A stretch of DNA of 13,335 bases from Candidatus Woesearchaeota archaeon (lineage in GTDB: Archaea; Nanobdellota; Nanobdellia; Woesearchaeales; GW2011-AR15), in contig JAMPXQ010000022.1 in the NCBI GenBank assembly GCA_023701075.1, positions 1-13,335 on the forward strand, read 5' to 3'. Shown piece by piece: positions 412-12,530 of the stretch. The translations under genes and the position numbers were made by a program. The first letter of the stretch is position 1, and the number at the start of each line of letters is the position of its first letter. The notes under the pieces are model-generated. The model saw only the letters and a list, made by a program, of their open reading frames with translations, made no database searches and was not told the DNA's origin.

Positions 412-1239
412 TTAGGATCTTAATATGCTAGCCAGGATTATCAACAGAATGACAAACAACAAGAACCCTACAAGCAGATATAGGAAATATGCATATAGGA
501 AATTCTGAAGATAGCTCCTTCCATTAGGGTAGACGTGCACATAGAACACCCTTGAACTTGCTATCCCTCCTTTTTCATCATCTGCCTTGAATACCACTTC
601 CTCGGCACCGATATAATCCCATCTTGGCCTTAATACAGCTTTCCCTTCCTCACTAATTTTTACAGAGACGCCTGAAGATTCTACACTGTATGTTAAATCA
701 TCCTTGTCTGGATCATAGAACCATTCCTTGAGATTCAATGTCGCTGATGAACCCTGCATTATCCTAATATACTGCGGTGAACTACATTCAGTCTCACTGA
801 AATAATATCTGCACTGAGTATTATCTGCTCCTGATACGTCCATGACCAGCTGGAGATTTGCCTTCTGGTTCCCTGAAGTCACTGTAAGATATGGATAGAG
901 CCTGCCTATTGAACCGCAATCCGGCTGCAGCTTCAAATTTATCTGCCTTGATTCCTTTGATTTCAATGTCAGCTGCTGGATGTGATAAACAACCCCTTTG
1001 AAATTATTCAAATCAAATGAATATGTATGCTCATATAAGGATGGATTCTTGAGAATGAATGAGAAATTCCCTGGTGAACAGGAAGATACCAACGCTTCTG
1101 AAACAATCGGCTGTATAGATATAGGCGGAAGATCTGTCCTGACATCTAGAATATACTTATTTACAACAAAGACATGTGAATTTGCACCTAGAACTAGAGG
1201 CATCAAAAATACTAACATGAACAATATTGTCTTTTTCAT
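412..1239 (-). CDS. Secreted, C-terminally membrane-anchored surface protein with a cadherin-like Ig domain
   Basis: This is a protein of about 275 residues. It starts with a Sec-type signal (MKKTILFMLVFLMPLVLG, cleavage near residue 19-21) and ends with a long hydrophobic segment (about residues 245-271) and a short basic tail, so the bulk should face outside. Near residues 145-240 is a cadherin/dystroglycan-like beta domain with the hallmark DPDKDDLTYSV, followed by a G-A-EEVVFKADDEKGG stretch. Before it is a second beta-rich region with an N-x-S/T site (NFSF) and several Cys. A TTG codon at 1252-1254 would add five residues, but the ATG at 1239 is preferred: it follows a G-rich GGTGGGGGAG ribosome site at short spacing and directly begins the signal peptide. 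It lies downstream of the S-layer-like gene, separated by a T8 run, so it may be independently transcribed. Function unknown beyond a surface role. Confidence 0.8.
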   Translation of the reverse strand: MKKTILFMLVFLMPLVLGANSHVFVVNKYILDVRTDLPPISIQPIVSEALVSSCSPGNFSFILKNPSLYEHTYSFDLNNFKGVVYHIQQLTLKSKESRQINLKLQPDCGSIGRLYPYLTVTSGNQKANLQLVMDVSGADNTQCRYYFSETECSSPQYIRIMQGSSATLNLKEWFYDPDKDDLTYSVESSGVSVKISEEGKAVLRPRWDYIGAEEVVFKADDEKGGIASSRVFYVHVYPNGRSYLQNFLYAYFLYLLVGFLLFVILLIILASILRS

Positions 1240-1277
1240 ACGCTCCCCCACCAAAGCTAGTTTATTTAGTTATTAAG

Positions 1278-1290
1278 CATCAATAATATA
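1278..1290 (-). promoter_or_regulatory. Possible TATA region for the small surface-protein gene
   Basis: On the minus strand an AT-rich segment containing CTATATTATT lies about 40-50 bp before the ATG at 1239. It would give a short leader containing the GGTGGGGGAG ribosome site. The segment also lies in the A/T-rich tail after the upstream gene's T8 run, so it may only be composition. Confidence 0.3.
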
Positions 1291-1295
1291 GTAAA

Positions 1296-1307
1296 TAAAA
1301 AAAATAT
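1296..1307 (-). terminator. Poly-T termination tract after the S-layer-like gene
   Basis: Directly after the TAA stop (1308-1310), the minus strand reads ATATTTTTTTTATTTAC, with an uninterrupted T8 at 1297-1304. Archaeal RNA polymerase terminates at such U-rich tracts without needing a hairpin. Confidence 0.5.
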
Positions 1308-2675
1308 TTAATAGTATGTCTGTCCTGAGACTTCGTCCTTCTCTTCGCTGCCTTTTAGCTTGTTAAAGCCGACAATAAGGCCCAAGATTATCAATAGGAC
1401 TACTAGGACTACTAGGCCGATCTCCAGAGCTGATTTCATGTCCATCTTGCCGAAGCTGAATGAACCTGATGTCTTCTCTCCTTCGACAACATTTGCTGTC
1501 AATGGGATCTGCTTTGAGTCTCCGCTTGTCTCAACACCTACCATGAAGATCTTCTCTCCTGGCTGTGCGTCTTCCTTTGGTGTGACATATAGGTAAACTG
1601 TCTTTGTCTCGCCTGCTTTCATTATGACGAAAGCTCCTGGGTCCATCCTGAATGTTGCCCATGAATCTAGGCCTGAGACCTTAAGTTCGTATGACCTGTC
1701 TGTTGCACCGTTGTTCTGGATTATTATTGGGTAGACACTTCCTGTTGTGCCTTTGACTACATCCTGCTTTCCTGGAACTGTGACAACAGTCTTATCTGTA
1801 CCGCTTGTTCCTGTACCTGTGCCTACATTTGCACCGCAGTTCTCGTCTTCGACAACTTCTATCTTCTCTTCCTTCACAATCTCTTCATCGCCATCTGCAT
1901 AGCTCACTGTTGCTCTAACAACATATGTGCCTGCGTCTGCGCATGCTGGGATCCTTAGGAACATGTCTTCTGATGTTGTGGACTCATCTGCTTCCAACTC
2001 ATCAATGTATTCTGTTGCTTTAAGGCCAAGGGAAGGCATGCTGACTTCAATCCTTAGTGATTCTTCTGTGTCTTCTCCCATGTTCCTTACTCTCACTGAT
2101 GAGAAAAGGCCTCTTCCTGCCATAACTGCAGAATCTGGGTCTAGGACAATGTCCTGGATAACAACTGAATCTCTCTGTGGTTCTACTTTCAAGTTATATA
2201 CCCTTGAAAATCCTGTGTGGAACTTGTCTGCAATCTCAATCCTCAATTTCAATTCGTCGCCAGTGTCATATTCAAAGTCATCTGGCAATCTCAAGGATAG
2301 TGTCTTCCTGTATGAGACGCTTGCTTCTGTATCAAATGTTGATGTCAGGTCAAAGATATCTTCACTGTGAGCTTTGCTCCTGTGGTATCCTGCCAAATAT
2401 GCGAATATCTGAACATCTTCTGCATCCTGAAGTGATGTGAACTCAATCTCTACATCGAGCTCTTCGCCCCTTTCGAATGCTTTTAGAACTGTAACATCGT
2501 TCTTAACTATCCTGCCGTTAACTTTGACAGTGCAGTCTAAAACATCCAATTCTGGTGTGTTTGATTCATTCCCATAACATGGGTTGACATCACAGTCTAC
2601 TGCTGCAAATGCTGCGCCTAGTGTTAAAATGGCTAGCACCATTGTCATAAAGACAAACATCATTTTGCTCTTCAT
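1308..2675 (-). CDS. S-layer-like major surface protein with Ig/CARDB-like and NEW3-like domains and a C-terminal TM anchor
   Basis: 455 residues. A signal peptide (about 1-24, ending LGAAFAA) is followed by a small Cys-containing segment, an N-terminal beta domain (about 40-165), an Asp/Glu-rich CARDB-like Ig domain (about 170-275), a Gly/Thr linker (GTGTGTSGTD), a NEW3-like beta domain (about 293-397, with VPGKQDVVKG, IIIQNNGATDRSY and LYVTPKEDAQPGE), a single TM helix (about 418-440) and a short charged tail ending YY. This is the layout of an extracellular wall or S-layer-like protein held by a C-terminal helix. The start is fixed by a strong GGAGG about 10 bp upstream and by the signal peptide. 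A good BRE/TATA promoter upstream, resembling that of the Cys-rich surface gene, suggests strong and coordinated expression. Identity as the actual S-layer subunit is inference; it could be another abundant adhesin-like protein. Confidence 0.8.
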   Translation of the reverse strand: MKSKMMFVFMTMVLAILTLGAAFAAVDCDVNPCYGNESNTPELDVLDCTVKVNGRIVKNDVTVLKAFERGEELDVEIEFTSLQDAEDVQIFAYLAGYHRSKAHSEDIFDLTSTFDTEASVSYRKTLSLRLPDDFEYDTGDELKLRIEIADKFHTGFSRVYNLKVEPQRDSVVIQDIVLDPDSAVMAGRGLFSSVRVRNMGEDTEESLRIEVSMPSLGLKATEYIDELEADESTTSEDMFLRIPACADAGTYVVRATVSYADGDEEIVKEEKIEVVEDENCGANVGTGTGTSGTDKTVVTVPGKQDVVKGTTGSVYPIIIQNNGATDRSYELKVSGLDSWATFRMDPGAFVIMKAGETKTVYLYVTPKEDAQPGEKIFMVGVETSGDSKQIPLTANVVEGEKTSGSFSFGKMDMKSALEIGLVVLVVLLIILGLIVGFNKLKGSEEKDEVSGQTYY

Positions 2676-3021: not shown

Positions 3022-5022
3022 TTAACCTGTCCCTGTGAAATAGCTCTCGTCTATCTCAAGAACGCTATGACTTAGAACGTCAGTATAGCACATAGATGCA
3101 TCAAGCAACGCCACTAGATCTCCTGAAAGACATGTGTCCGGCAGAAGCGCTGGATTGATAGATCTGACTCTTGGGCATACGCCTTCCACCTTCTCACTTT
3201 CTTCGCATATCCTAAGTTCCAGGTGCAAATGGCCGCCCTTGCTATCCCCACTATTATCTGAAATTCCAATGACAGTTCCTTTAACCACTTCTTCACCTAT
3301 GCAGACATCAATCTGCGGCTCTAGATGAAAATACAACAGCTGAATAGATTTCCCACCAATGGATTTGGCACACTCAAGCACTATTGCATTTCCAGGATTA
3401 GTAACTGCACCATCATAAGGAAGCTTCTCGGCCATAGTCTCCGGATACGATTCGTATGGCTGCCTAGGTATTACCTTCTGATAGATAGTCCCAATAATAT
3501 ATTTTTGATTTAGGGACCCAACATTACATCCGCCTAGATTAAGAGGTGCATTGAATGCATCAACTACTGAACCATCACATGCTGCGACTACCGGGACATG
3601 CTCTATCACAAAGTCTGTCCCTGCGTGGATATAATCTGTTGCTCCAGAGATATAAAGAGGATCACCAAAACAATAAGATATTCCCTGCGAATAGAGCGGT
3701 GTCTGCCCTGATACCTTTGTCTGCTTATTATAGCTTAATATATCCGATCTATACTTGCTTTCCAAAACAAACGGCATGCCCAGGAATGGACTATCTGAAT
3801 CACATTCCTTGATATAATCTATTGTAAATTCCCCTCTGCCCTGCACTGTCAGATAAGTAGTATCTCCCATCTTCTGCTCTGAAACTGCCACATCGCCTGA
3901 AACTGATGCAACTGAACCTTTTGGAACATTTGAAAGGGCAATTGTCTGCGCCCCATCTACTGTGCCTGAGACTGACTGAACCGAAGATTGCGAGGAAAGT
4001 GTCTGCTCTAAATAGGCAGTATTCATACCAGGATAATCAGACTTGATCTCTGATCCCTGTTCCTGCTTTGCGGCATCATTCTTCTTCAACACACTTGTAT
4101 GATCCTCTGACTTCTTTCCACCATTATCTGCCTTCCCCAGATAGACAATTCCATCCTTCTCTTCACTGACAGGGACTGTGCTTGTTGCTTCGGATATCCC
4201 AAAAGCAGAAAAAACATCAGTCAATGCGACTAAAGTATTAGCCTTTGTATTTTTTATTGTAGGGAGGGCCTTCCATTCATTTGGCGCAGAAGAATAAGCT
4301 ATAGCAAGGTCTTTTTTTTCGTCTATCATTGTATCATCATATTTTATCTCAACAACAAATGGCTTATCCAACCTTGCGCCAGATGGACTTGCTTCATAGA
4401 TGAAATTACCCTCTAAAAAACTGACTTTTGGCTTAGCTTCTGTCTTGATGGATGCCAATACTACCGGCACATCCTCCTTTTTTAGTGCTGTACCTGTACT
4501 CAACACTATCGATGCCTTATCATCCGAAGATATCAAATTTATATCTTTTGTCGCCATTCCTTTATCCAGCCTTTCTAATTTCACTTTCTTGAAACTATAG
4601 CTGAAAGAACTTATGCCGGCCATGTGATCACCTGACCTCACCATAACAGGCAACTTTACGAAGAATGCCAACATCTCTGATGTCTCATTCAAATCAACAG
4701 ACAACTTCGCCAAATCATAAGTAACATTAAGGTTCCCCTTAAATCCGTTCAGGCAAGAGGAGAATGTGTTCGCTATATAGCCTTTAATCTTACTAAGATC
4801 ATACCCATAAAAATCAATAGCTTTCTTTGCCTGCAACTCCATGCATTTATCAGCAAACTGGCTATACCCTTTCAATTCCTTATTGAAATCAAGATTAGAC
4901 TTGGAATCTGATTTAACCACAGAAAGATTCTCTTTTCTTGCCCCCATAAATACTAATACAGCCAATAATACCAACAACAGCCCTATTATCACTGCAATAG
5001 AAGCTGAAAAACCTTTACCCAT
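3022..5022 (-). CDS. Membrane-anchored M23-family (LytM/lysostaphin-type) zinc metallopeptidase
   Basis: 666 residues. An N-terminal hydrophobic helix (about 6-28) follows MGKGFSAS, which resembles a class III (pilin-like) signal with the processing site after KG, though it may simply be a signal anchor. The middle contains a beta domain with WKALPTI and a Ser/Lys/Gln-rich linker (about 290-345). The C-terminal third carries the full M23 set: H466-A-G-T-D470, then YFHLE with H566, then GGH598LH600LEL. By family analogy H466, D470 and H600 bind zinc, and H566 and H598 assist catalysis. M23 enzymes usually cut glycine- or D-amino-acid-containing cross-links in bacterial peptidoglycan; archaea lack murein, so the target may be bacterial walls or self surface proteins. 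The domain after the HxH motif extends by about 65 residues. A TATA box 26 bp before the ATG and no Shine-Dalgarno suggest a leaderless mRNA. Confidence 0.85.
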   Translation of the reverse strand: MGKGFSASIAVIIGLLLVLLAVLVFMGARKENLSVVKSDSKSNLDFNKELKGYSQFADKCMELQAKKAIDFYGYDLSKIKGYIANTFSSCLNGFKGNLNVTYDLAKLSVDLNETSEMLAFFVKLPVMVRSGDHMAGISSFSYSFKKVKLERLDKGMATKDINLISSDDKASIVLSTGTALKKEDVPVVLASIKTEAKPKVSFLEGNFIYEASPSGARLDKPFVVEIKYDDTMIDEKKDLAIAYSSAPNEWKALPTIKNTKANTLVALTDVFSAFGISEATSTVPVSEEKDGIVYLGKADNGGKKSEDHTSVLKKNDAAKQEQGSEIKSDYPGMNTAYLEQTLSSQSSVQSVSGTVDGAQTIALSNVPKGSVASVSGDVAVSEQKMGDTTYLTVQGRGEFTIDYIKECDSDSPFLGMPFVLESKYRSDILSYNKQTKVSGQTPLYSQGISYCFGDPLYISGATDYIHAGTDFVIEHVPVVAACDGSVVDAFNAPLNLGGCNVGSLNQKYIIGTIYQKVIPRQPYESYPETMAEKLPYDGAVTNPGNAIVLECAKSIGGKSIQLLYFHLEPQIDVCIGEEVVKGTVIGISDNSGDSKGGHLHLELRICEESEKVEGVCPRVRSINPALLPDTCLSGDLVALLDASMCYTDVLSHSVLEIDESYFTGTG

Positions 5023-5077: not shown

Positions 5078-6928
5078 TCAAATCAATTTCACTTCCCTAT
5101 AGATAATCCTCTTATAGGCATCATTGCTCACTGAAGCCCTCAGTGAATAGAAACCTTCAGCTTCCGGTGCTTTGATGACCATATATATCTGCTTACTCTT
5201 TCCCGGCTCAAGCTTCGCGATAAGACCTGTCTTTCTTTCCATGCTGCCTATGTCCAATATTATCTTTAGGTCTTCCATGGTCTCTACATTGTTGTTTGTT
5301 ACAATGACTATCGCCTGGAACTCCTCACCCGGAACTATCACTGTCTCATCATAGACAAGCTCTACAAACAATGCCTGCCTTGGCGAATAGACTCCTTTGT
5401 CTTTTGTATTCTCATCACAGTCATCATCCCTGTCATTATTTGGGATCTCTTCTGCATTAGGATGGATCTCATCATTCCAATCGTTGCAATCTTCATCTGC
5501 ATCGTAGCCGTCTCCATCCTTGTCTTCATCACATGCATTCCCAAAACCATCATTATCGCTGTCTACCTGAGTAGGGTTTGGGACTCCTACGCATGTATCC
5601 ACATCATCGCATGCGCCGTCCTTATCCACATCTATGCAGTCATCGCACCTGTCATCAATCCTATCATCATCACTATCCTGCATATCAAGATCATCATACC
5701 TGCATGCACCGTCTCCACATGAGTAATCCCTGTATATTTTCCCTGTCCTTGTGCAGACACGCCCTGAACATAATCCATCATATGGGTTTTCGCAGGTCTT
5801 GCAATCTTCATATGTGAAATCATAGCATCCATCTTTTGCGTTGCAATCATGCTGCACAAATGAGTGATCTTTCTCTATACATATAGCCTGCATTAGGATA
5901 TCTGAATTAAGGCAGTAATCATATATGTCTCCTGGATCGTATGCACAATATAGATACTCTCCTTCCATACATGTCTCTTCATCATGGACATATTCTTTCA
6001 CATACGGATCCCTTTTTGTATGCTCTTCACAAAAATCCTTTCCGCATTCATCTACAACAACTTTGCTGCCTGTTTCATAGCATGCATCGTCTTTACATCC
6101 TCTTTTTACATCTTCTTTTACAATATTCTCTCCATCGCAATATTCCTTACTCTCACTCTCGCCGCATTCGTCAACCTTATGCTCGCCGCCTGTTTTTTCC
6201 TCGAAGCAAAGCCCTGTAGACTGCCTGCAGCCCCTTACTGTGCATTCTTCACTTGAATAGACATCACCATTCTCACAATAGGTATCTCCACTGCACTGTG
6301 TGACACCACAATCGATTGTCTTCTTCTCTGAATAAGTATAGTCATCACAATAATCATCATTTCCTGCAACATCCTTACAGAATCCTTCTGTTATCTCTAT
6401 CTCCTTCACTGAATCATCTGACTGGCAGTAATAGTCCGGCTCTGCTATCTCCTTGAAATAGCAGCCTTCCTTAAGACCCCATTCAGTGCATGAATCTGAA
6501 TCAAAATTCCCGCATACTATCAAATCATTGCCATCACACATAGTATCTCCTGATGTACAGTCATTCGTACATGTCTGAGGAGCACATTTCGTTATAGGGT
6601 TCCCGCATGAGCCGCAGTATGATGTAACACACTGCCCCGGTGCAGGGTGAAGATCCGGGCAATCGCAAGCTGCTGTGGCTGCTGAGAGCTTCTTTGCATA
6701 TGGCTCGCCACCTGTATATGGGCACCATCCCATGTAAGCTTTGCCTACATCTGCCTTTGCTGCATCCTTTGTCATCTCTACGACATCATATGAGCCCCAG
6801 CTAATGACGTTACTGCAGCCAGGGTTTCCTCCTGTACCTATGACACAACCTGATGCCTGCACCATTGCAGTCGCAAAAAGTATCACTAACAATGATATCA
6901 TCCATATTACAGCTTGTTTTATCTTCAT
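5078..6928 (-). CDS. Large secreted Cys-rich protein with thrombospondin type 3/MopE-like calcium repeats and a C-terminal Ig-like domain
   Basis: 616 residues with a signal peptide (about 1-25, ending MVQASG) and no C-terminal TM helix, so it is probably released or held by other surface proteins. The region from about 28 to 415 contains more than 40 Cys in repeated CxxxxC-type spacings with short recurrent units such as DECG, EYCDGENIV and KDDACYETGSK, suggesting a string of small disulfide-bonded modules. From about 415 to 507 is an Asp-rich block, DSDNDGFGNACDEDKDGDGYDADEDC in part (shown here as overlapping motifs DSDNDGFG, DEDKDGDGYD and DEDC), typical of thrombospondin type 3 calcium repeats. 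It ends in the MopE-like NDEIHPNAEEIPNN. The last 100 residues form a CARDB-like Ig domain. Such proteins occur as adhesins or surface scaffolds; the partner is unknown. The start follows a weak GAGGG site and the signal peptide begins directly. A 26-bp palindrome sits at its predicted transcription start. Confidence 0.8.
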   Translation of the reverse strand: MKIKQAVIWMISLLVILFATAMVQASGCVIGTGGNPGCSNVISWGSYDVVEMTKDAAKADVGKAYMGWCPYTGGEPYAKKLSAATAACDCPDLHPAPGQCVTSYCGSCGNPITKCAPQTCTNDCTSGDTMCDGNDLIVCGNFDSDSCTEWGLKEGCYFKEIAEPDYYCQSDDSVKEIEITEGFCKDVAGNDDYCDDYTYSEKKTIDCGVTQCSGDTYCENGDVYSSEECTVRGCRQSTGLCFEEKTGGEHKVDECGESESKEYCDGENIVKEDVKRGCKDDACYETGSKVVVDECGKDFCEEHTKRDPYVKEYVHDEETCMEGEYLYCAYDPGDIYDYCLNSDILMQAICIEKDHSFVQHDCNAKDGCYDFTYEDCKTCENPYDGLCSGRVCTRTGKIYRDYSCGDGACRYDDLDMQDSDDDRIDDRCDDCIDVDKDGACDDVDTCVGVPNPTQVDSDNDGFGNACDEDKDGDGYDADEDCNDWNDEIHPNAEEIPNNDRDDDCDENTKDKGVYSPRQALFVELVYDETVIVPGEEFQAIVIVTNNNVETMEDLKIILDIGSMERKTGLIAKLEPGKSKQIYMVIKAPEAEGFYSLRASVSNDAYKRIIYREVKLI

Positions 6929-7039: not shown

Positions 7040-7061
7040 GGATTGAAATATGATACTAATC

Positions 7062-8147
7062 ATGAGAATAGATATCATCGGTGCCGGCCCCAGCGGTTCA
7101 TATGCTGCTTACCTACTAGCTAAAAATGGGCATGATGTATCTGTGTTTGACAAAAAACAAGACATAGGAAAACCTGTGCAGTGCACAGGGATACTGAGCG
7201 AGCATTTCCTAAAGATAATGAAGCCAAGCAAAGAATTTGTGCTAAATGAAGTCACTACTGCCAGAATCTATGCACCTAATGGCAAATCAGTAAATGCCAG
7301 AATAAAGAAGAACTATGTTGTCTGCAGGAAAAAATTTGATTCTTATATAGCAAACCTGGCCAAATCAACCGGAGCTAAGTTCCATATGGAACATAGTTTC
7401 CATAGCCTTGCAAAAGGGAACAGGATAAGCACTATATTATATAATAAGGGAAAAAAAGTGAAATCAAGCTGCGATATATTAATCGGAGCTGATGGACCTC
7501 TAAGCCCTGTCTCAAAAGCTGCAGGAATATACAAAAATAGGAAATTTGTCATAGGGAGCCAAATTGAGGCTGTGAAGAAAAATGATAACTGTGTCGAATT
7601 CTACCCTTATATAGGGTGCTATGCATGGATTGTCCCTGTGAATGAAAAAGTCGTAAGAATCGGTGTCTCTGGATATAAGGATACTGTAAAGGAACTCAAA
7701 GAGATATGCAAGACTAAAAAAATCGGACTCACTCTTGAGAACCAGTCCGGGATCATACCTATATTTGACCCGAGCGTGAAAACACAAGAGAAGAACATAT
7801 TCATACTTGGAGATGCTGCAACCATGGTAAAAGCAACTACAGGAGGAGGGATAAACCAAGGGCTCATGGCTGCAAGGATACTATCTGAATGCATAAAAAA
7901 CAGAAAGAATTTTGACATTGCCTGGAGAAGCAAGATGCACCTAAACCTCTATTTCCACCTCATAGCACATAAGATAATGCAGAAGTTCTCAATAACTGAC
8001 TGGAATTTCCTAATAGAGGAATTCTCCAAGCCTGACCTTAGGAAGATACTCCATGATGAAAGCAGAGATGACATCATGAAAATGATGATGAAAATAGCGA
8101 TAAAGAGACCTAAACTCTTCATATTCGCCAAATACCTGGCAATATAA
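7062..8147 (+). CDS. Geranylgeranyl reductase-family FAD-dependent oxidoreductase (archaeal lipid saturation)
   Basis: 361 residues from the chosen start. An N-terminal Rossmann motif (IIGAGPSGSYAAYLLA, G7-G9-G12) is followed by the family hallmark KPVQCTG (C41 in context), the GADGPLSPVSKAAG second FAD motif (about 142-155), the YPYIGCYAWIVPV strand (about 181-193) and FILGDAATMVKATTGGGINQG (about 247-267) in overlapping motifs FILGDAA and TTGGGI. This is the signature of archaeal (di)geranylgeranylglycerophospholipid reductases, which saturate isoprenoid double bonds of membrane lipids at the membrane surface. The protein is somewhat shorter than typical family members (about 390-400) with a trimmed C-terminal helical part. 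An ATG at 7050 would add four residues; the TATA spacing favours 7062. Exact substrate (lipid, or another polyprenyl compound) is not settled by sequence alone. Confidence 0.85.
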   Translation: MRIDIIGAGPSGSYAAYLLAKNGHDVSVFDKKQDIGKPVQCTGILSEHFLKIMKPSKEFVLNEVTTARIYAPNGKSVNARIKKNYVVCRKKFDSYIANLAKSTGAKFHMEHSFHSLAKGNRISTILYNKGKKVKSSCDILIGADGPLSPVSKAAGIYKNRKFVIGSQIEAVKKNDNCVEFYPYIGCYAWIVPVNEKVVRIGVSGYKDTVKELKEICKTKKIGLTLENQSGIIPIFDPSVKTQEKNIFILGDAATMVKATTGGGINQGLMAARILSECIKNRKNFDIAWRSKMHLNLYFHLIAHKIMQKFSITDWNFLIEEFSKPDLRKILHDESRDDIMKMMMKIAIKRPKLFIFAKYLAI

Positions 8148-8202: not shown

Positions 8203-8211
8203 TTTTTAAAT
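8203..8211 (+). promoter_or_regulatory. TATA box of the NAC operon (leaderless)
   Basis: TTTTTAAAT is centred 26 bp before the ATG at 8233, with pyrimidine-rich sequence and no Shine-Dalgarno between them. This places the start of transcription at the start codon and decides between the candidate ATGs. Confidence 0.65.
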
Positions 8212-8232
8212 TATCTTCCTTTCACTTTTCCC

Positions 8233-8562
8233 ATGATGCCAGGAATGAACCCAAAAGATATGCAAAAAGCCATGAAAAGGCTAGGTATACAGCAGGAAGA
8301 CTTAGACGCGATAGCTGTCATTATCAGGACTAAGAAAGAAGACATAATAATAAGAAACCCTTCTGTGCAGAGAGTGAATATGGCAGGACAGATCTCCTAC
8401 CAGATATCAGGAGAAGAAGAGAAGAGGACATTAGAACCTGAGATCAATGAAGACGATATAAAAACGGTGATGGAACAGGCCAATGTGAACAAGGAAAAGG
8501 CCTTGGCTGCACTCAAAGAGCATGATGGGGATTTGGCTGCTGCCATCTTATCCTTCAAATGA
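8233..8562 (+). CDS. nac: Archaeal nascent polypeptide-associated complex protein (NAC alpha homologue)
   Basis: 109 residues, usual for archaeal NAC. It opens with MMPGMNPKDMQKAMKRLGI, then the NAC beta-barrel core (about 27-62) with the conserved IIRNPSVQRVNMAGQISYQISG pattern (in parts IIRNPSVQRV and MAGQISYQISG), and ends with a UBA three-helix domain (about 70-109, EINEDDIKTVMEQANVNKEKALAAL). Archaeal NAC forms homodimers that bind ribosomes and shield emerging chains. In-frame ATGs upstream (8176, 8200) would add a peptide encoded across the palindrome and TATA box, so the ATG at 8233 is chosen; 8236 is a near alternative. Its TGA overlaps the ATG of the next gene (ATGA), making it the promoter-proximal gene of a five-gene operon. 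Confidence 0.93.
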   Translation: MMPGMNPKDMQKAMKRLGIQQEDLDAIAVIIRTKKEDIIIRNPSVQRVNMAGQISYQISGEEEKRTLEPEINEDDIKTVMEQANVNKEKALAALKEHDGDLAAAILSFK

Positions 8563-8978
8563 GCTTAAAAGAAGATGCAATCAACCATATGCAGACGGCT
8601 GAATATGTACTAGGCATGACTTATAACCTCAGCGATGACCCAAAGATCCTCAAGACTGTGCTTTTCAACATATACAAATCCCTGAAATGCACCATGGCAT
8701 ATGCCTGCGGCGAAGACAATGATTATGACAGGCTCATCAGAAAGACAAGGACTGTACTTCTCAAGAACAATCTCAGCCTGGATTATATGAAATACCTCAA
8801 GGAGATAGGTGAAGTGATGAAAAAACAGAAAGAATGCGAAGTGGAATTTTCAAGAAGAAATAAATATGTGTTTGCATCACTAGATTACAAATTGCATGAA
8901 CTCAAGAAGAAAGATGTAGAAGAATATTTATTAACGGGCAAACTTTTCATGAACCAAACACTGGATGTGATAAAATGA
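8559..8978 (+). CDS. Uncharacterised helical protein, first of two tandem paralogue-like genes
   Basis: 139 residues, no signal peptide and no TM segment, so cytoplasmic. It is mostly predicted alpha-helical (an N-terminal helical bundle to about residue 95), then a charged EFSRRNKYVFASLDYKLHEL stretch that may form a beta-hairpin, and a final helix. No known family was recognised. The last 39 residues after the EFSRR motif align without gaps to the last 39 residues after EFRR in the next gene, including D, K, E, K, M and the terminal IK, so the two are probably diverged tandem duplicates. It overlaps NAC by ATGA at its start and the next gene by ATGA at its end; without its own ribosome site, translation probably depends on re-initiation after NAC. 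A HEPN-like fold is conceivable, but no RX4-6H motif is seen. Confidence 0.85.
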   Translation: MSLKEDAINHMQTAEYVLGMTYNLSDDPKILKTVLFNIYKSLKCTMAYACGEDNDYDRLIRKTRTVLLKNNLSLDYMKYLKEIGEVMKKQKECEVEFSRRNKYVFASLDYKLHELKKKDVEEYLLTGKLFMNQTLDVIK

Positions 8979-9421
8979 TTGAGTCTTATGATGATGCTAA
9001 AGAAGAGCTTAAACGAATCGACCATCTGATATATGTAACACTCAAATATACAAGGACCGTAGATGTGCTTTTCAGCGTCGTCGAACGGATGGTAGGGTGC
9101 TATGAGCTCCTGGTGAGCGCACTTGCGAAAAAAGCAGTCATAGACAAGCTGATAGATGAAGAGCCGGACAACCCAATCACAAAGGCACATGAAGTATCCA
9201 GGATTTATGCCAACAAGATGATAAAACTGAATGTGGATAGATATCTCCTCTTCAGGAAGCTAAGAAGGCTGGAACATGACAAGCTGAACGAATTCAGAAG
9301 GCATGTCACTATGATTGTAGAGATAGATGGGAAGGAGATAAAGATAGACATAGACAATATCACCGAGAATTTCCATGACCTCAAGAAGATGATGGAATTT
9401 GTCGAGAAGACAATAAAATAA
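8975..9421 (+). CDS. Uncharacterised helical protein, second of two tandem paralogue-like genes
   Basis: 148 residues, cytoplasmic by composition. Helices cover about residues 5-105 (with HLIYVTLKYTRTVDVLFSVV near the start), followed by a clear strand-turn-strand VTMIVEIDGKEIKIDI and a final helix (HDLKKMMEFVEKTIK). The order helical bundle, hairpin, helix matches the preceding gene, and both carry a VLF motif in the second helix and an EF(S)RR motif before the hairpin. The start ATG overlaps the previous TGA and has a GGATGTGA sequence just before it. The gene is followed after 16 bp by the MinD-like ATPase, so it may act as that ATPase's partner or regulator. That role is inference from position only. 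Confidence 0.85.
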   Translation: MIESYDDAKEELKRIDHLIYVTLKYTRTVDVLFSVVERMVGCYELLVSALAKKAVIDKLIDEEPDNPITKAHEVSRIYANKMIKLNVDRYLLFRKLRRLEHDKLNEFRRHVTMIVEIDGKEIKIDIDNITENFHDLKKMMEFVEKTIK

Positions 9422-9437
9422 GAGGTGAACATCTTTC

Positions 9438-10214
9438 ATGACTAAGTTCATCGTTGTTGCTTCCAGCAAGGGCGGTGTAGGAAAGACAACTACGGCCATC
9501 AATCTAGGGACTGCCCTCACAATTTTCGGGAGGGACGTCATTGTCGTGGACTGCAATCTGAGCACACCTAATGTCTCACTCTACCTTGGAGCTGCTTCTG
9601 TCCCAATAACACTACATGATGTCTTAAACCGGGGGAAAAAAATAACTGATGCGCTCTATATGCATAGCCATGGCCTAAAGATAATCCCTGCAAGCACCAG
9701 CATGAAAGACAGAAGAGAGATAGACTATGAAAAACTCCAGAGAGTCATCAAGGAGCTTTCAGGCACCTGTGATTTTGTAATAATAGATAGCTCTGCCGGC
9801 CTGAATGATGAGGCCATAAATGCAATCAAGATGGGTGATGAGATACTTGTCGTATCAACACCTGAACTTCCTGCGATAAGCGACGCCCTAAGGACCATGA
9901 AACTGGCCAAGGACCATAACAAGAAAGTATCTGGTGTCATCCTCACAAGAGCCTATGATGATGAACTTGAACTGAGCAAGAAAGACGTCGAAGCAATCCT
10001 TGAGACAAAGGTCATAGGGATAATACCTGAAGATGAGACAATGAGGGAAGCAGTGAAGATGAAAAATCCTGTCACCCATACGCATCCAAATGCCCCTTCT
10101 TCTCTTGGATACAAGAAACTTGCTGCTGAACTCATAGGGGAGAAATATGTGGAATCAAAAGAGAAGGAAGAGAGCACTGCTGATTCCTTCCTAAAGAGGC
10201 TGGGATTAAAATGA
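9438..10214 (+). CDS. MinD/ParA-family deviant Walker A ATPase with C-terminal membrane-targeting-like tail
   Basis: 258 residues. The deviant Walker A SSKGGVGKTTT is at 9-19 (signature K11, P-loop K16), the switch I segment VVDCNLSTPN at 36-45 and the Walker B IIDSSAGL at 115-122. The length and the ending SFLKRLGLK resemble MinD, whose C-terminal amphipathic helix binds the membrane. The protein therefore most likely cycles between cytoplasm and membrane with ATP. At position 40, where E. coli MinD has the Asp important for hydrolysis, this protein has Asn. No MinC or MinE homologue is visible, so cell division-site selection should not be assumed; archaeal MinD-like ATPases position various complexes. 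The start follows a strong AGAGGTGA ribosome site, the clearest inside the operon, and the gene overlaps the next by ATGA. Confidence 0.9.
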   Translation: MTKFIVVASSKGGVGKTTTAINLGTALTIFGRDVIVVDCNLSTPNVSLYLGAASVPITLHDVLNRGKKITDALYMHSHGLKIIPASTSMKDRREIDYEKLQRVIKELSGTCDFVIIDSSAGLNDEAINAIKMGDEILVVSTPELPAISDALRTMKLAKDHNKKVSGVILTRAYDDELELSKKDVEAILETKVIGIIPEDETMREAVKMKNPVTHTHPNAPSSLGYKKLAAELIGEKYVESKEKEESTADSFLKRLGLK

Positions 10215-10609
10215 ACCTTTTTGAATGGACAACACATTATATCGATTACCTCAATTCATTCAAGAGAGACCTGCTGAGCAAAAAAGAGGCCGGAGACCAT
10301 ATTGAATGCGAATACAAAGCAAAAGGGAAACTTGACTATATCATATGCGAAAACCTTGATGAGAATATCATCCCAAAAGTGCAGGAAGGAAGCATCGCAC
10401 TTGTCACCCTGAACAGGAAGGACAATGCGAAATTCATGATTGCGAACTGGAATAAGTTCATCACAAACAAGAACCTGAAAATAATATTTGCAAATCCAAC
10501 AGTAAATGCGCAATGGACAATCATGCCTTACCTGCATAACAATTTCACTGACCCTGCAGCTCTCAAGACCGGCATCAAGACACTGTTTGAAAGCGTCGCT
10601 GAAGCATAA
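10211..10609 (+). CDS. Orphan 132-residue alpha/beta protein translationally coupled to the MinD-like ATPase
   Basis: 132 residues with no signal peptide or TM helix. An N-terminal helix rich in aromatic and basic residues (MNLFEWTTHYIDYLNSFKRD) is followed by alternating strands and helices: LDYIICENL, SIALVTLNRK, NLKIIFANPT and WTIMPYLHN, then a final helix. It looks like a small alpha/beta fold, but no nucleotide-binding loop or catalytic motif is visible. Its ATG overlaps the TGA of the ATPase, which usually means equal and coupled synthesis, so it is a good candidate partner or effector of that ATPase. No family was recognised. The operon seems to end here, with a hairpin-like inverted repeat about 25 bp later. 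Confidence 0.8.
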   Translation: MNLFEWTTHYIDYLNSFKRDLLSKKEAGDHIECEYKAKGKLDYIICENLDENIIPKVQEGSIALVTLNRKDNAKFMIANWNKFITNKNLKIIFANPTVNAQWTIMPYLHNNFTDPAALKTGIKTLFESVAEA

Positions 10610-10715: not shown

Positions 10716-12530
10716 ATGGAAAGAAAAGAACTGAAGACTACATCCACTGAGTGGAACCTAAAACCACTGTTTCGAAGCGATGATGACAAAACCATGGCTA
10801 CAGAGAGAGCCATCATAGAAAAAAAAAGCTACTCATTCATAGACAAATGGAAGGCAAAAGAAGACTATCTCAAAGACCCAAAGATCTTACGCCTGGCACT
10901 TGATGAATATGAAGAACTAGAAAGAAATCATCTTGGCGGATGCAAAGAAAGCTACTATTTCTCGCTTAGGAGCAGCCAGGAACAGGATAATCCTAAGATA
11001 AAAGCAAAGCTTGCAAAGATAATAGAATTCCACCAAAAAATCGAGAATGACATCCAGTTCTTTGAGATGAACATAGCCAAGATCCCAAAAGAGAACCAAG
11101 AAGCGTTCCTCAAATCCAAAGACCTTGAGAAATACAGGCATTACCTAGAGATGTCTTTTGCTAATGCGAAATACCTCCTTAGCGAACCTGAAGAGAAGAT
11201 ACTAAACCTCAAGAGCCAGACGTCATATTCCAACTGGGTGAGGATGACATCAGGATTCATCTCAAAAGAAGAGCGAAGAGTGCTGCTTGAAAACGGAAAG
11301 AAGAAAACTGCAAATTTCTCCCAGATAATGACACTTATGGACTCCAAGAAAAAAGATGTCAGGGATTTTGCTGCAGATGCATTCAACGACATCCTAAAAA
11401 AGCATGCTGACACTGCTGAAGCTGAACTCAATTCTATCCTTGAAGACAAGAAAGTGAATGATGAACTAAGAAAAGTAGAAAGGCCTGACAAAGCCAGACA
11501 TATCTCAGATGATATAGAGACAAGCGCAGTAGATTCCATGCTTGATGCCGTATCCAAAAGATATGATATAGCAAAGAGGTACTATAAATTGAAAGCAAAG
11601 CTCCTTCGAACAAGGAAACTGAAGTATCATGAGAGGAACCTGGAATATGGGAAGATAAACAAGAAATTTGGCTATACTGAATCTTTGAATCTTGTCCGTG
11701 AGACATTCAATAAACTAGACACTGAATTTGCGGGCATACTTGAATCATTCATAAAAAATGGGCAGCTTGATGCCTACCCAAAAAAAGGAAAAGCTCATGG
11801 AGCTTTCTGCGCCGGACCTGGAATAAACCTGCCGACTTATGTCCTACTAAACCATGATAATAAACTGAGCGATGTCCTCACAATCGCACATGAGATGGGA
11901 CATGCCATAAACAATGAGCTGATGAGAAAGAAGCTCAATGCACTGAACTATGATACACCGCTCTCAACTGCTGAAGTCGCAAGCACTTTCATGGAAGATT
12001 TTGTCCTAAATGAGATAGTTCATGATGCTGATGAAGGATTAAGATTATCAATACTCATGATGAAACTGAATTCCGACGTCTCATCAATATTCCGACAGGT
12101 CGCCTGCTACAGGTTTGAGCAGGAACTGCATTCTGAATTCCGAAAGGAAGGATACCTGCCTAAAGAGCACATTGGAAAGATTTTCCAAAAACATATGTCA
12201 TCTTACATGGGACCTTATGTAGAGATGTCGAAAGGCAGCGAGAACTGGTGGGTATACTGGGGGCATATTAGGCATTTCTTCTATGTATATTCATATGCAA
12301 GCGGACTCATCATATCAAAATCGCTCCAGAATTCTGTTAAAAAAGACAAGAGATTCATACTGAAAGTGAAAGAATTCCTAGGAACTGGAGAATCTGAGTC
12401 TCCAAGAGACATATTCCTAAAACTAGGCATCGACATCAATAACGAGACTTTCTGGAATCAGGGAATCAGAGAAGTTGAGGAACTGCTTGATGAGACTGAA
12501 AGGCTGGCAAAGAAACTTAGGAAGATATAA
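10716..12530 (+). CDS. pepF: M3-family oligoendopeptidase (PepF-like zinc metallopeptidase)
   Basis: 604 residues, normal for PepF-type enzymes. The N-terminal half is helical and begins with the typical STEWNLKPLF. The zinc motif is H392-E-M-G-H396, with the third ligand E420 in the conserved AEVASTFME context 28 residues after the first His. Near the C-terminus, WGHIRHFFYVYSYASG (about 515-530) carries the conserved His/Tyr residues that line the M3 active site. These cytoplasmic enzymes cut short peptides of about 7-17 residues inside a closed channel, as a late step of protein turnover. No signal peptide is present. All expected catalytic residues are seen, so it should be active. The gene stands alone with its own promoter and converges on the RNase P RNA. 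The exact peptide specificity cannot be read from sequence. Confidence 0.92.
   Translation: MERKELKTTSTEWNLKPLFRSDDDKTMATERAIIEKKSYSFIDKWKAKEDYLKDPKILRLALDEYEELERNHLGGCKESYYFSLRSSQEQDNPKIKAKLAKIIEFHQKIENDIQFFEMNIAKIPKENQEAFLKSKDLEKYRHYLEMSFANAKYLLSEPEEKILNLKSQTSYSNWVRMTSGFISKEERRVLLENGKKKTANFSQIMTLMDSKKKDVRDFAADAFNDILKKHADTAEAELNSILEDKKVNDELRKVERPDKARHISDDIETSAVDSMLDAVSKRYDIAKRYYKLKAKLLRTRKLKYHERNLEYGKINKKFGYTESLNLVRETFNKLDTEFAGILESFIKNGQLDAYPKKGKAHGAFCAGPGINLPTYVLLNHDNKLSDVLTIAHEMGHAINNELMRKKLNALNYDTPLSTAEVASTFMEDFVLNEIVHDADEGLRLSILMMKLNSDVSSIFRQVACYRFEQELHSEFRKEGYLPKEHIGKIFQKHMSSYMGPYVEMSKGSENWWVYWGHIRHFFYVYSYASGLIISKSLQNSVKKDKRFILKVKEFLGTGESESPRDIFLKLGIDINNETFWNQGIREVEELLDETERLAKKLRKI

What the first reader, a model, noticed from the sequence alone, without database searches (positions are those of the whole stretch)
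8233..10609. NAC, two paralogue-like proteins, MinD-like ATPase and an orphan protein in one coupled operon
Seen: five same-strand genes, with ATGA overlaps at 8559, 8975 and 10211 and a 16-bp gap before the ATPase, all behind one good promoter. Known: NAC works at the ribosome exit site, and MinD-family ATPases bind membranes through a C-terminal helix. Inference: the operon may form a system linking nascent-chain handling to membrane delivery or to placement of a complex, with three uncharacterised proteins as specific parts. No such system is known to me by name.
Basis: partly seen in the sequence, partly recalled or inferred. Interest (0 to 1): 0.7.

Follow-up and report, generated by a model that had tools for sequence, protein, structure and literature searches.

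The report
Nanoarchaeal NAC–Sec61 operon with HEPN pair
A set of neighbouring genes that includes a ribosome-exit chaperone, two related uncharacterised helical proteins and a MinD-like ATPase, and that in many relatives starts with a piece of the protein-export channel, is kept together across a large group of tiny archaea, which points to an undescribed helper system for newly made proteins.

The parts
8203..8213 (+). TATA-like promoter element, TTTTTAAATTA
   Evidence: read by eye; about 25 bp before ATG 8233; not tested
8233..8562 (+). NAC: alpha-NAC domain plus C-terminal UBA (TTG 8176 is an alternative, less likely start)
   Evidence: TIGR00264 E 1.7e-32; PF01849 45.2 bits and PF19026 35.6 bits, both over cut-off
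8559..8978 (+). P2: fast-evolving partner, homologous to P3 (HEPN-like by homology)
   Evidence: hhalign of family profiles with P3 E 6.2e-8; separate clade from P3, support 1.0; profile A6, which includes this sequence, finds it in G000 at E 2.7e-36
8975..9421 (+). P3: HEPN-fold protein, near-universal in the phylum, strongly conserved
9438..10214 (+). Archaeal MinD-type SIMIBI ATPase with KGGVGKT P-loop and C-terminal SFLKRLGLK tail
   Evidence: TIGR01969 E 1.6e-73; A. fulgidus MinD-1 1hyq E 1.2e-49; P-loop and tail listed
10211..10609 (+). P5: lineage-specific alpha/beta protein, possible restriction-endonuclease-like fold without a conserved active site

Best explanation
The operon encodes a co-translational factor that works at the ribosome tunnel exit and the Sec61 translocon of Nanoarchaeota-type DPANN archaea. 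Shown: the gene set Sec61beta-NAC-P2-P3-MinD recurs as a block across the class, P2 and P3 are ancient duplicates, and P3 is predicted to have the HEPN fold. Inferred: P2 and P3 form a heterodimer. It sits with NAC on the translating ribosome, probably touching RNA through P3's conserved charged set (first helix and first turn, plus the EFRRH loop). NAC's UBA domain may help to recruit it. The MinD-type ATPase, through its C-terminal tail and its ATP cycle, and in the window's order the membrane protein c3, bring or hold the complex at the membrane near Sec61. In the window's genus Sec61beta lies elsewhere and c3 was not found, so there MinD would be the only membrane link encoded in the operon, with P5 as an added partner.
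For: Conserved block in 79 families: NAC 58, P2 61, MinD 46 of the 71 P3-bearing genomes within 5 kb; P2 always within 156 bp upstream, MinD within 300 bp downstream in 42. Sec61beta on the same strand within 3 kb upstream of NAC in 98 of 116 NAC-bearing loci, all but five of them within 150 bp (redundant set), and in 10 of 16 loci from other orders; PF03911 over its cut-off beside the operon in G223 and G068. P2 stop overlaps P3 start in 44 of 55 loci, as expected for translationally coupled partners. P3 model with HEPN fold. P2/P3 homology and one ancient split. Near-invariant P3 residues H17 105/105, K24 106/106, E106 106/106, R108 104/106. P3 of four genomes in two families carries a 111-129-residue Lys/Arg-rich tail, net +19 to +26, as in ribosome- or RNA-bound proteins. 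The S13 gene is found within 6 kb in 21 of 112 loci, followed in many by S4, S11 and RpoD.
Against: No interaction, ribosome binding or RNA binding has been measured. MinD is not found within 5 kb of P3 in 25 of 71 genomes, and 22 of these still have P2 beside P3. 13 of 84 distinct MinD sequences have an altered P-loop, eight of them without the signature lysine. Many lack the C-terminal tail. c3 was found only in the window's order (the two weak hits outside it were dropped) and not in the window's genus. P2 is not within 5 kb in 10 of 71. Seven families sampled have a single P2-like gene and no P3. SRP54 is present in 24 of 25 genomes, so the need for another targeting route is unproven. A published pull-down with Picrophilus NAC named elongation factor 1-alpha, CsaA, L12 and others (PMC7264160, passages); the passages I saw name no MinD or HEPN protein, in an organism of another phylum. 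Conserved order can reflect co-expression alone.
Confidence: 0.4

Rival explanations
1. The genes are a housekeeping co-expression cluster: a translation and secretion super-operon whose products do not form one machine. MinD and P5 are passengers.
For: Ribosomal S13 lies within 6 kb in 21 of 112 loci and a THUMP methyltransferase in 38. MinD, P2, c3 and Sec61beta are each lost or moved in some lineages.
Against: NAC, P2 and P3, and often MinD and Sec61beta, stay together in most of the 79 families sampled while the outer neighbours change. P2 and P3 overlap in 44 of 55 loci.
Confidence: 0.3
2. The P2-P3 pair is an RNase or RNA clamp for surveillance at the translocon, comparable in logic to Ire1, whose KEN nuclease belongs to the HEPN superfamily (PMC3710099, passages) and which acts in a complex with Sec61 (PMC4456659, abstract).
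For: HEPN fold, Sec61beta and NAC as neighbours, near-invariant charged residues in P3, basic tails in four P3 proteins.
Against: The RX4-6H catalytic motif of HEPN RNases is not among the conserved columns of P2 or P3. No substrate is known.
Confidence: 0.12
3. MinD is the core: the operon positions a complex or the division or polar machinery in the cell, as MinD4 and MinD2 do for motility and shape in Haloferax (PMC11588486, passages), and NAC and the HEPN-like pair are its cargo or adaptors.
For: MinD belongs to TIGR01969 and follows P3 within 300 bp in 42 of 71 genomes.
Against: P3 persists without MinD within 5 kb in 25 of 71 genomes, with P2 in 22 of them. NAC and Sec61beta have no positioning role known to me.
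Confidence: 0.1
4. P2-P3 is a domesticated HEPN toxin-antitoxin relic.
For: Foldseek's 13 best matches are chains of MntA-HepT-type toxin-antitoxin entries (5yep assigned from recall).
Against: No nucleotidyltransferase antitoxin was recognised next to them, though most neighbour clusters were not profile-searched. P3 is near-universal and nearly always single-copy, unlike toxin systems.
Confidence: 0.04

Closest known systems
Nascent polypeptide-associated complex (NAC)
   Same: The first gene is an archaeal NAC with UBA domain.
   Different: NAC is not known to me to work with HEPN-fold proteins or a MinD ATPase; the extra genes are the new element.
SRP and GET membrane-targeting pathways (SIMIBI NTPases)
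   Same: A SIMIBI ATPase, a tunnel-exit factor and a membrane side sit in one conserved context.
   Different: SRP54 is still present in 24 of 25 genomes. MinD scores below the ArsA/Get3 Pfam cut-off. c3 matches no insertase family in Pfam; no search was made for Get1/Get2 or Oxa1 genes elsewhere in the genomes.
Ire1-Sec61 complex
   Same: A HEPN-superfamily domain working next to the translocon.
   Different: P2 and P3 are small, have no kinase domain, and lack a conserved RX4-6H motif; the parallel is in the idea only.
HepT/MntA-type HEPN proteins
   Same: Predicted fold of P3.
   Different: No MNT partner recognised, near-universal single copy, no conserved RX4-6H, no Pfam sequence match.
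DPANN-specific dark-matter families of Makarova et al. 2019 (PMC6393860, section 5 read): cls.004340 (NEQ484, alpha helical, house-keeping context) and cls.004259 (NEQ050, MNT fused to HEPN)
   Same: P3 or P2 could be the same as, or related to, one of these.
   Different: Could not be tested: the sequences are not held under those names. A text search of the paper found no mention of NAC, MinD, Sec61 or 'nascent'.
Archaeal MinD (TIGR01969; Haloferax MinD1-4)
   Same: Family membership, P-loop.
   Different: Operon context. PMC11588486 (passage) states that only Euryarchaeota encode MinD; here 62 of 80 genomes of this phylum match TIGR01969 at E <= 1e-30, 35 over its cut-off, and a Nanoarchaeum equitans protein (Neq119) is called MinD in PMC3149612 (passage).

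Membership tests
NAC | Sequence over the curated archaeal NAC model | tested here: met
   TIGR00264 112.1 bits, cut-off 80
NAC | C-terminal UBA domain | tested here: met
   PF19026 35.6 bits, cut-off 27
NAC | Binds ribosomes at the tunnel exit | not testable with these tools
   needs biochemistry
Archaeal MinD | Sequence over TIGR01969 cut-off | tested here: met
   247 bits, cut-off 201.75
Archaeal MinD | Deviant Walker A KGGxGK[TS] | tested here: met
   window has KGGVGKT; 71 of 84 distinct sequences, its own among them, match
Archaeal MinD | C-terminal membrane-binding amphipathic tail | tested here: inconclusive
   window ends SFLKRLGLK, plausible by eye; many relatives lack it
HEPN superfamily (P3) | HEPN fold | tested here: met
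HEPN superfamily (P3) | Conserved RX4-6H RNase motif | tested here: not met
   no R and H at that spacing among columns at least 90% conserved in 106 sequences; unaligned RX4-6H strings occur in the second half of 51 of 106 P3 and 36 of 92 P2
HEPN superfamily (P3) | Sequence-profile match to a Pfam HEPN family | tested here: not met
   only DUF5785 at E 0.04, below cut-off
HEPN-MNT toxin-antitoxin system | Adjacent MNT nucleotidyltransferase | tested here: inconclusive
   none among the window's seven genes scanned; none recognised among neighbour clusters, most of which were not profile-searched
GET pathway | Get3/ArsA-type ATPase | tested here: not met
   PF02374 19.4 bits, cut-off 24.3; best named family is archaeal MinD
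PD-(D/E)XK nuclease fold (P5) | Fold | tested here: inconclusive
PD-(D/E)XK nuclease fold (P5) | Conserved D...(D/E)XK residues | tested here: not met
   invariant columns are N68 N72 W80 P96 W102 P106 H109 G121

The most novel reading that the evidence does not exclude
A phylum-wide pair of HEPN-fold proteins (P2-P3) is a new class of ribosome and translocon factor. It works with NAC and Sec61beta and acts on RNA at the tunnel exit or the membrane, with an active or binding site different from the RX4-6H site of known HEPN RNases and a MinD-type ATPase as its membrane switch. It would be a co-translational targeting or surveillance pathway beside SRP, and a DPANN counterpart in logic to Ire1 at Sec61.
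Probability: 0.2. Interest if true: 0.87.

Novelty: new variant of a known kind. Interest (0 to 1): 0.65.

Why it matters
P3 is near-universal in this phylum, very strongly conserved and without a Pfam name, and its partners now suggest where in the cell to look. If true, archaea with very small genomes keep a second dedicated module between ribosome exit and translocon beside SRP, which bears on how NAC, an archaeal and eukaryotic factor, took on targeting roles. It gives a small set of proteins that can be made and tested directly.

Tried and rejected
Searches that gave nothing or little: P2 alone found only one relative; direct BLASTP of P2 with P3; profiles of P2, P3, P5 and c3 against PDB sequences (nothing credible); Pfam on the 44 c3 sequences (2 match DUF1761, best E 1.3e-6; 8 match RecX_HTH1, best E 6e-4; the rest scattered and weak). 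Literature searches listed no paper that I recognised as describing this operon. I judged most from titles and abstract starts. The library holds open-licence PMC papers only, so this is not proof of absence.

Rows dropped before counting: the weak P3 hits in G146, G147 and G167, which coincide with better P2 hits, and all second hits (74 of 80 genomes became 71). From, P2-profile hits that lie on P3, so G004 and G222 count as lacking P2 (71 of 80 became 69), one stray hit in G156 and one short piece in G212. From, weak c3 hits in G018, G046, G072, G099, G104, G156 and G158; the G158 hit lies beside P3, so c3 is slightly undercounted. MinD was counted only at E <= 1e-30, which missed the MinD beside P3 in G016 (found). 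The 80 genomes were picked's table, one per family by completeness (family f1 twice); six families of lower completeness (f82-f87) were left out because of the 80-handle limit, and f80 and f81 had no listed handle. L002-L081 are the best 80 of 266 hits, so they lean towards close relatives. The 112- and 116-locus counts hold duplicates of some genomes.

Full report
What is there. The first is archaeal NAC with a UBA domain and the fourth an archaeal MinD. P2, P3 and P5 have no usable family name. The window is contig C76 of a 1.26-Mb draft genome, 76% complete. Its genus-mate G077 has the same P3 coordinates and about the same size as the record 'Archaeon GW2011_AR15' (L003), so this is an AR15-related archaeon near the Woesearchaeota (inference from coordinates and record titles).

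P3 is a core gene of the phylum. A protein search found 583 proteins, the window's own included (120 listed), and a profile search found it in 246 of 279 genomes drawn evenly from the phylum, nearly always as one copy (a few of the weakest hits are P2-like, as searches show for G146, G147 and G167). P2 evolves fast; its own search found one relative, but a profile from neighbouring loci hits 71 of 80 genomes, 69 once hits that lie on P3 are set aside.

Gene order. In 112 loci (with duplicates) NAC was found in 101, P2 in 98, MinD in 86 and P3 in all, on one strand in the order NAC, P2, P3, MinD with few exceptions. In the 80 named-record loci alone: NAC 72, P2 68, MinD 61, all four 51, P5 15. 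To reduce bias I took 80 genomes from 79 families and searched each whole genome for each gene. P3 was present in 71. NAC lay within 5 kb in 58 (one, G026, on the other strand), P2 in 61 (all within 156 bp upstream), and MinD in 46 (42 within 300 bp downstream; G166 on the other strand, G046 on the upstream side). By order: 55 P3-bearing genomes of the window's order had NAC 45, P2 47, MinD 33, c3 36 (two on the other strand); 16 of other orders had NAC 13, P2 14, MinD 13, c3 0. An unlinked gene would be expected in about 1% (my estimate from 10 kb in 1.1 Mb; no simulation was run). Four further genomes of family f73 were looked at: two have the full Sec61beta-NAC-P2-P3-MinD block, one NAC-P3-MinD, one Sec61beta-NAC-P2-P3.

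Parts missing from the window. A short ORF with the PSSGAGxxRYFD pattern lies on the same strand within 3 kb upstream of NAC in 98 of 116 NAC-bearing loci, all but five within 150 bp. It is Sec61beta: one example scores 19.5 bits against PF03911, under its cut-off of 27, but the copies beside the operon in G223 and G068, both of the window's family, are over the cut-off. In the window's genome and in G077 the Sec61beta gene lies elsewhere. 57 of 112 loci carry c3, about 172 residues with four apparent membrane helices, downstream of MinD or directly of P3 (helices judged by eye). Of 44 c3 proteins scanned, 2 match DUF1761 (best E 1.3e-6) and 8 RecX_HTH1 (best E 6e-4); no other Pfam name recurs convincingly. 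c3 was not found in G000 or G077 (G000 is incomplete). In the window's order 22 P3-bearing genomes have no MinD within 5 kb, and in 12 of these c3 follows P3 within about 250 bp. Ribosomal S13 is found within 6 kb in 21 of 112 loci (20 on the same strand), S4 in 19, S11 and RpoD in 17 each (S13 checked by Pfam, the others named by eye).

Active site. HEPN RNases carry RX4-6H, and HEPN domains without it are thought to bind RNA or to use other residues (PMC3710099, passages). In 106 distinct P3 sequences the columns at least 90% conserved include E11, K13, R14, D16, H17, L23, K24, Y25, T26, R27, T28, D30, R38, E106, R108 and V111. None of them forms RX4-6H. They fall mostly in helix 1, the first turn and the loop before the hairpin (positions), so a shared pocket or face is plausible, but I had no coordinates to measure it. 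E, F and R of the EF-R loop recur in P2 (E96 77/92, F97 90/92, R99 82/92). Four P3 proteins, three of family f13 and one of f31, end in Lys/Arg-rich tails of 111-129 residues, net +19 to +26, as is common in ribosome-bound proteins (general knowledge).

MinD. Of 84 distinct MinD sequences from the loci (a few are fragments, and one lies elsewhere in its locus), 71 match KGGxGK[TS]; the other 13 are altered, eight of them without the signature lysine. The window's protein ends in SFLKRLGLK, like a membrane-binding tail; many others stop earlier. MinD is thus common but not required.

How it may work. The steady members are P3, P2, NAC and, next to them, Sec61beta. These say tunnel exit and translocon. 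MinD and c3 are the changeable members, and both may face the membrane. I therefore propose a P2-P3 heterodimer that joins NAC on the ribosome, and a MinD and/or c3 link to the membrane near Sec61. Steps shown: gene order, homology, fold prediction, conservation. Steps inferred: heterodimer, ribosome and RNA contact, membrane recruitment. SRP54 was found in 24 of 25 genomes tested (the one without, G099, also shows no NAC and no P2), so the module would work beside SRP.

Known or new. No paper listed in my searches describes the operon as far as I could see. Makarova et al. 2019 list two DPANN families that might be P2 or P3; I could not test this. The parts are of known kinds and the combination is not, to my knowledge, a named system. 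Hence 'new variant of a known kind' for the likely reading; the RNA-acting reading would be categorically new.

Noticed in passing
window 3022-5022 (-): Large surface-type protein with a Peptidase_M23 domain (PF01551, 39.9 bits).
   Followed up: partly
window 5078-6928 (-): 616-residue Cys- and Asp-rich secreted-type protein with calcium-repeat-like stretches (by eye); no Pfam match at E 0.001.
   Followed up: partly
window 412-2675 (-): Two surface-type proteins with Ig-like domains (Big_9; NPCBM_assoc and FixG_C).
   Followed up: partly
window 7050-8147 (+) and 10716-12530 (+): Geranylgeranyl-reductase family protein (TIGR02032) upstream and M3-family oligoendopeptidase downstream. The reductase was found in 6 of 112 loci, three of which are this same locus; the others are L002, L003 and L005.
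   Followed up: partly
L113, L114, L115, L116: P3 orthologues with long Lys/Arg-rich C-terminal tails.
   Followed up: partly
L022, L027, L028, L048, L061, L113, L115, L116: MinD proteins beside P3 that lack the signature lysine of the P-loop while GK[ST] remains.
   Followed up: no
G000:C87:8237-8359; G077:C1:351052-351174: Sec61beta genes away from the operon in the window's genus, unlike G068 and G223 of the same family.
   Followed up: partly
38 loci, e.g. L018:9562-10782, L025:2114-3178: THUMP-domain methyltransferase near the operon, in several loci followed by an HTH (MBF1-like) gene.
   Followed up: no
80-genome sample: TIGR01969 MinD matches in 62 of 80 genomes at E <= 1e-30 (35 over the cut-off), against a published statement that only Euryarchaeota encode MinD (PMC11588486 passage).
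   Followed up: partly
G008, G035, G099, G146, G147, G153: Six of 80 genomes, 92-100% complete, with no NAC found; five of them also lack P3.
   Followed up: no
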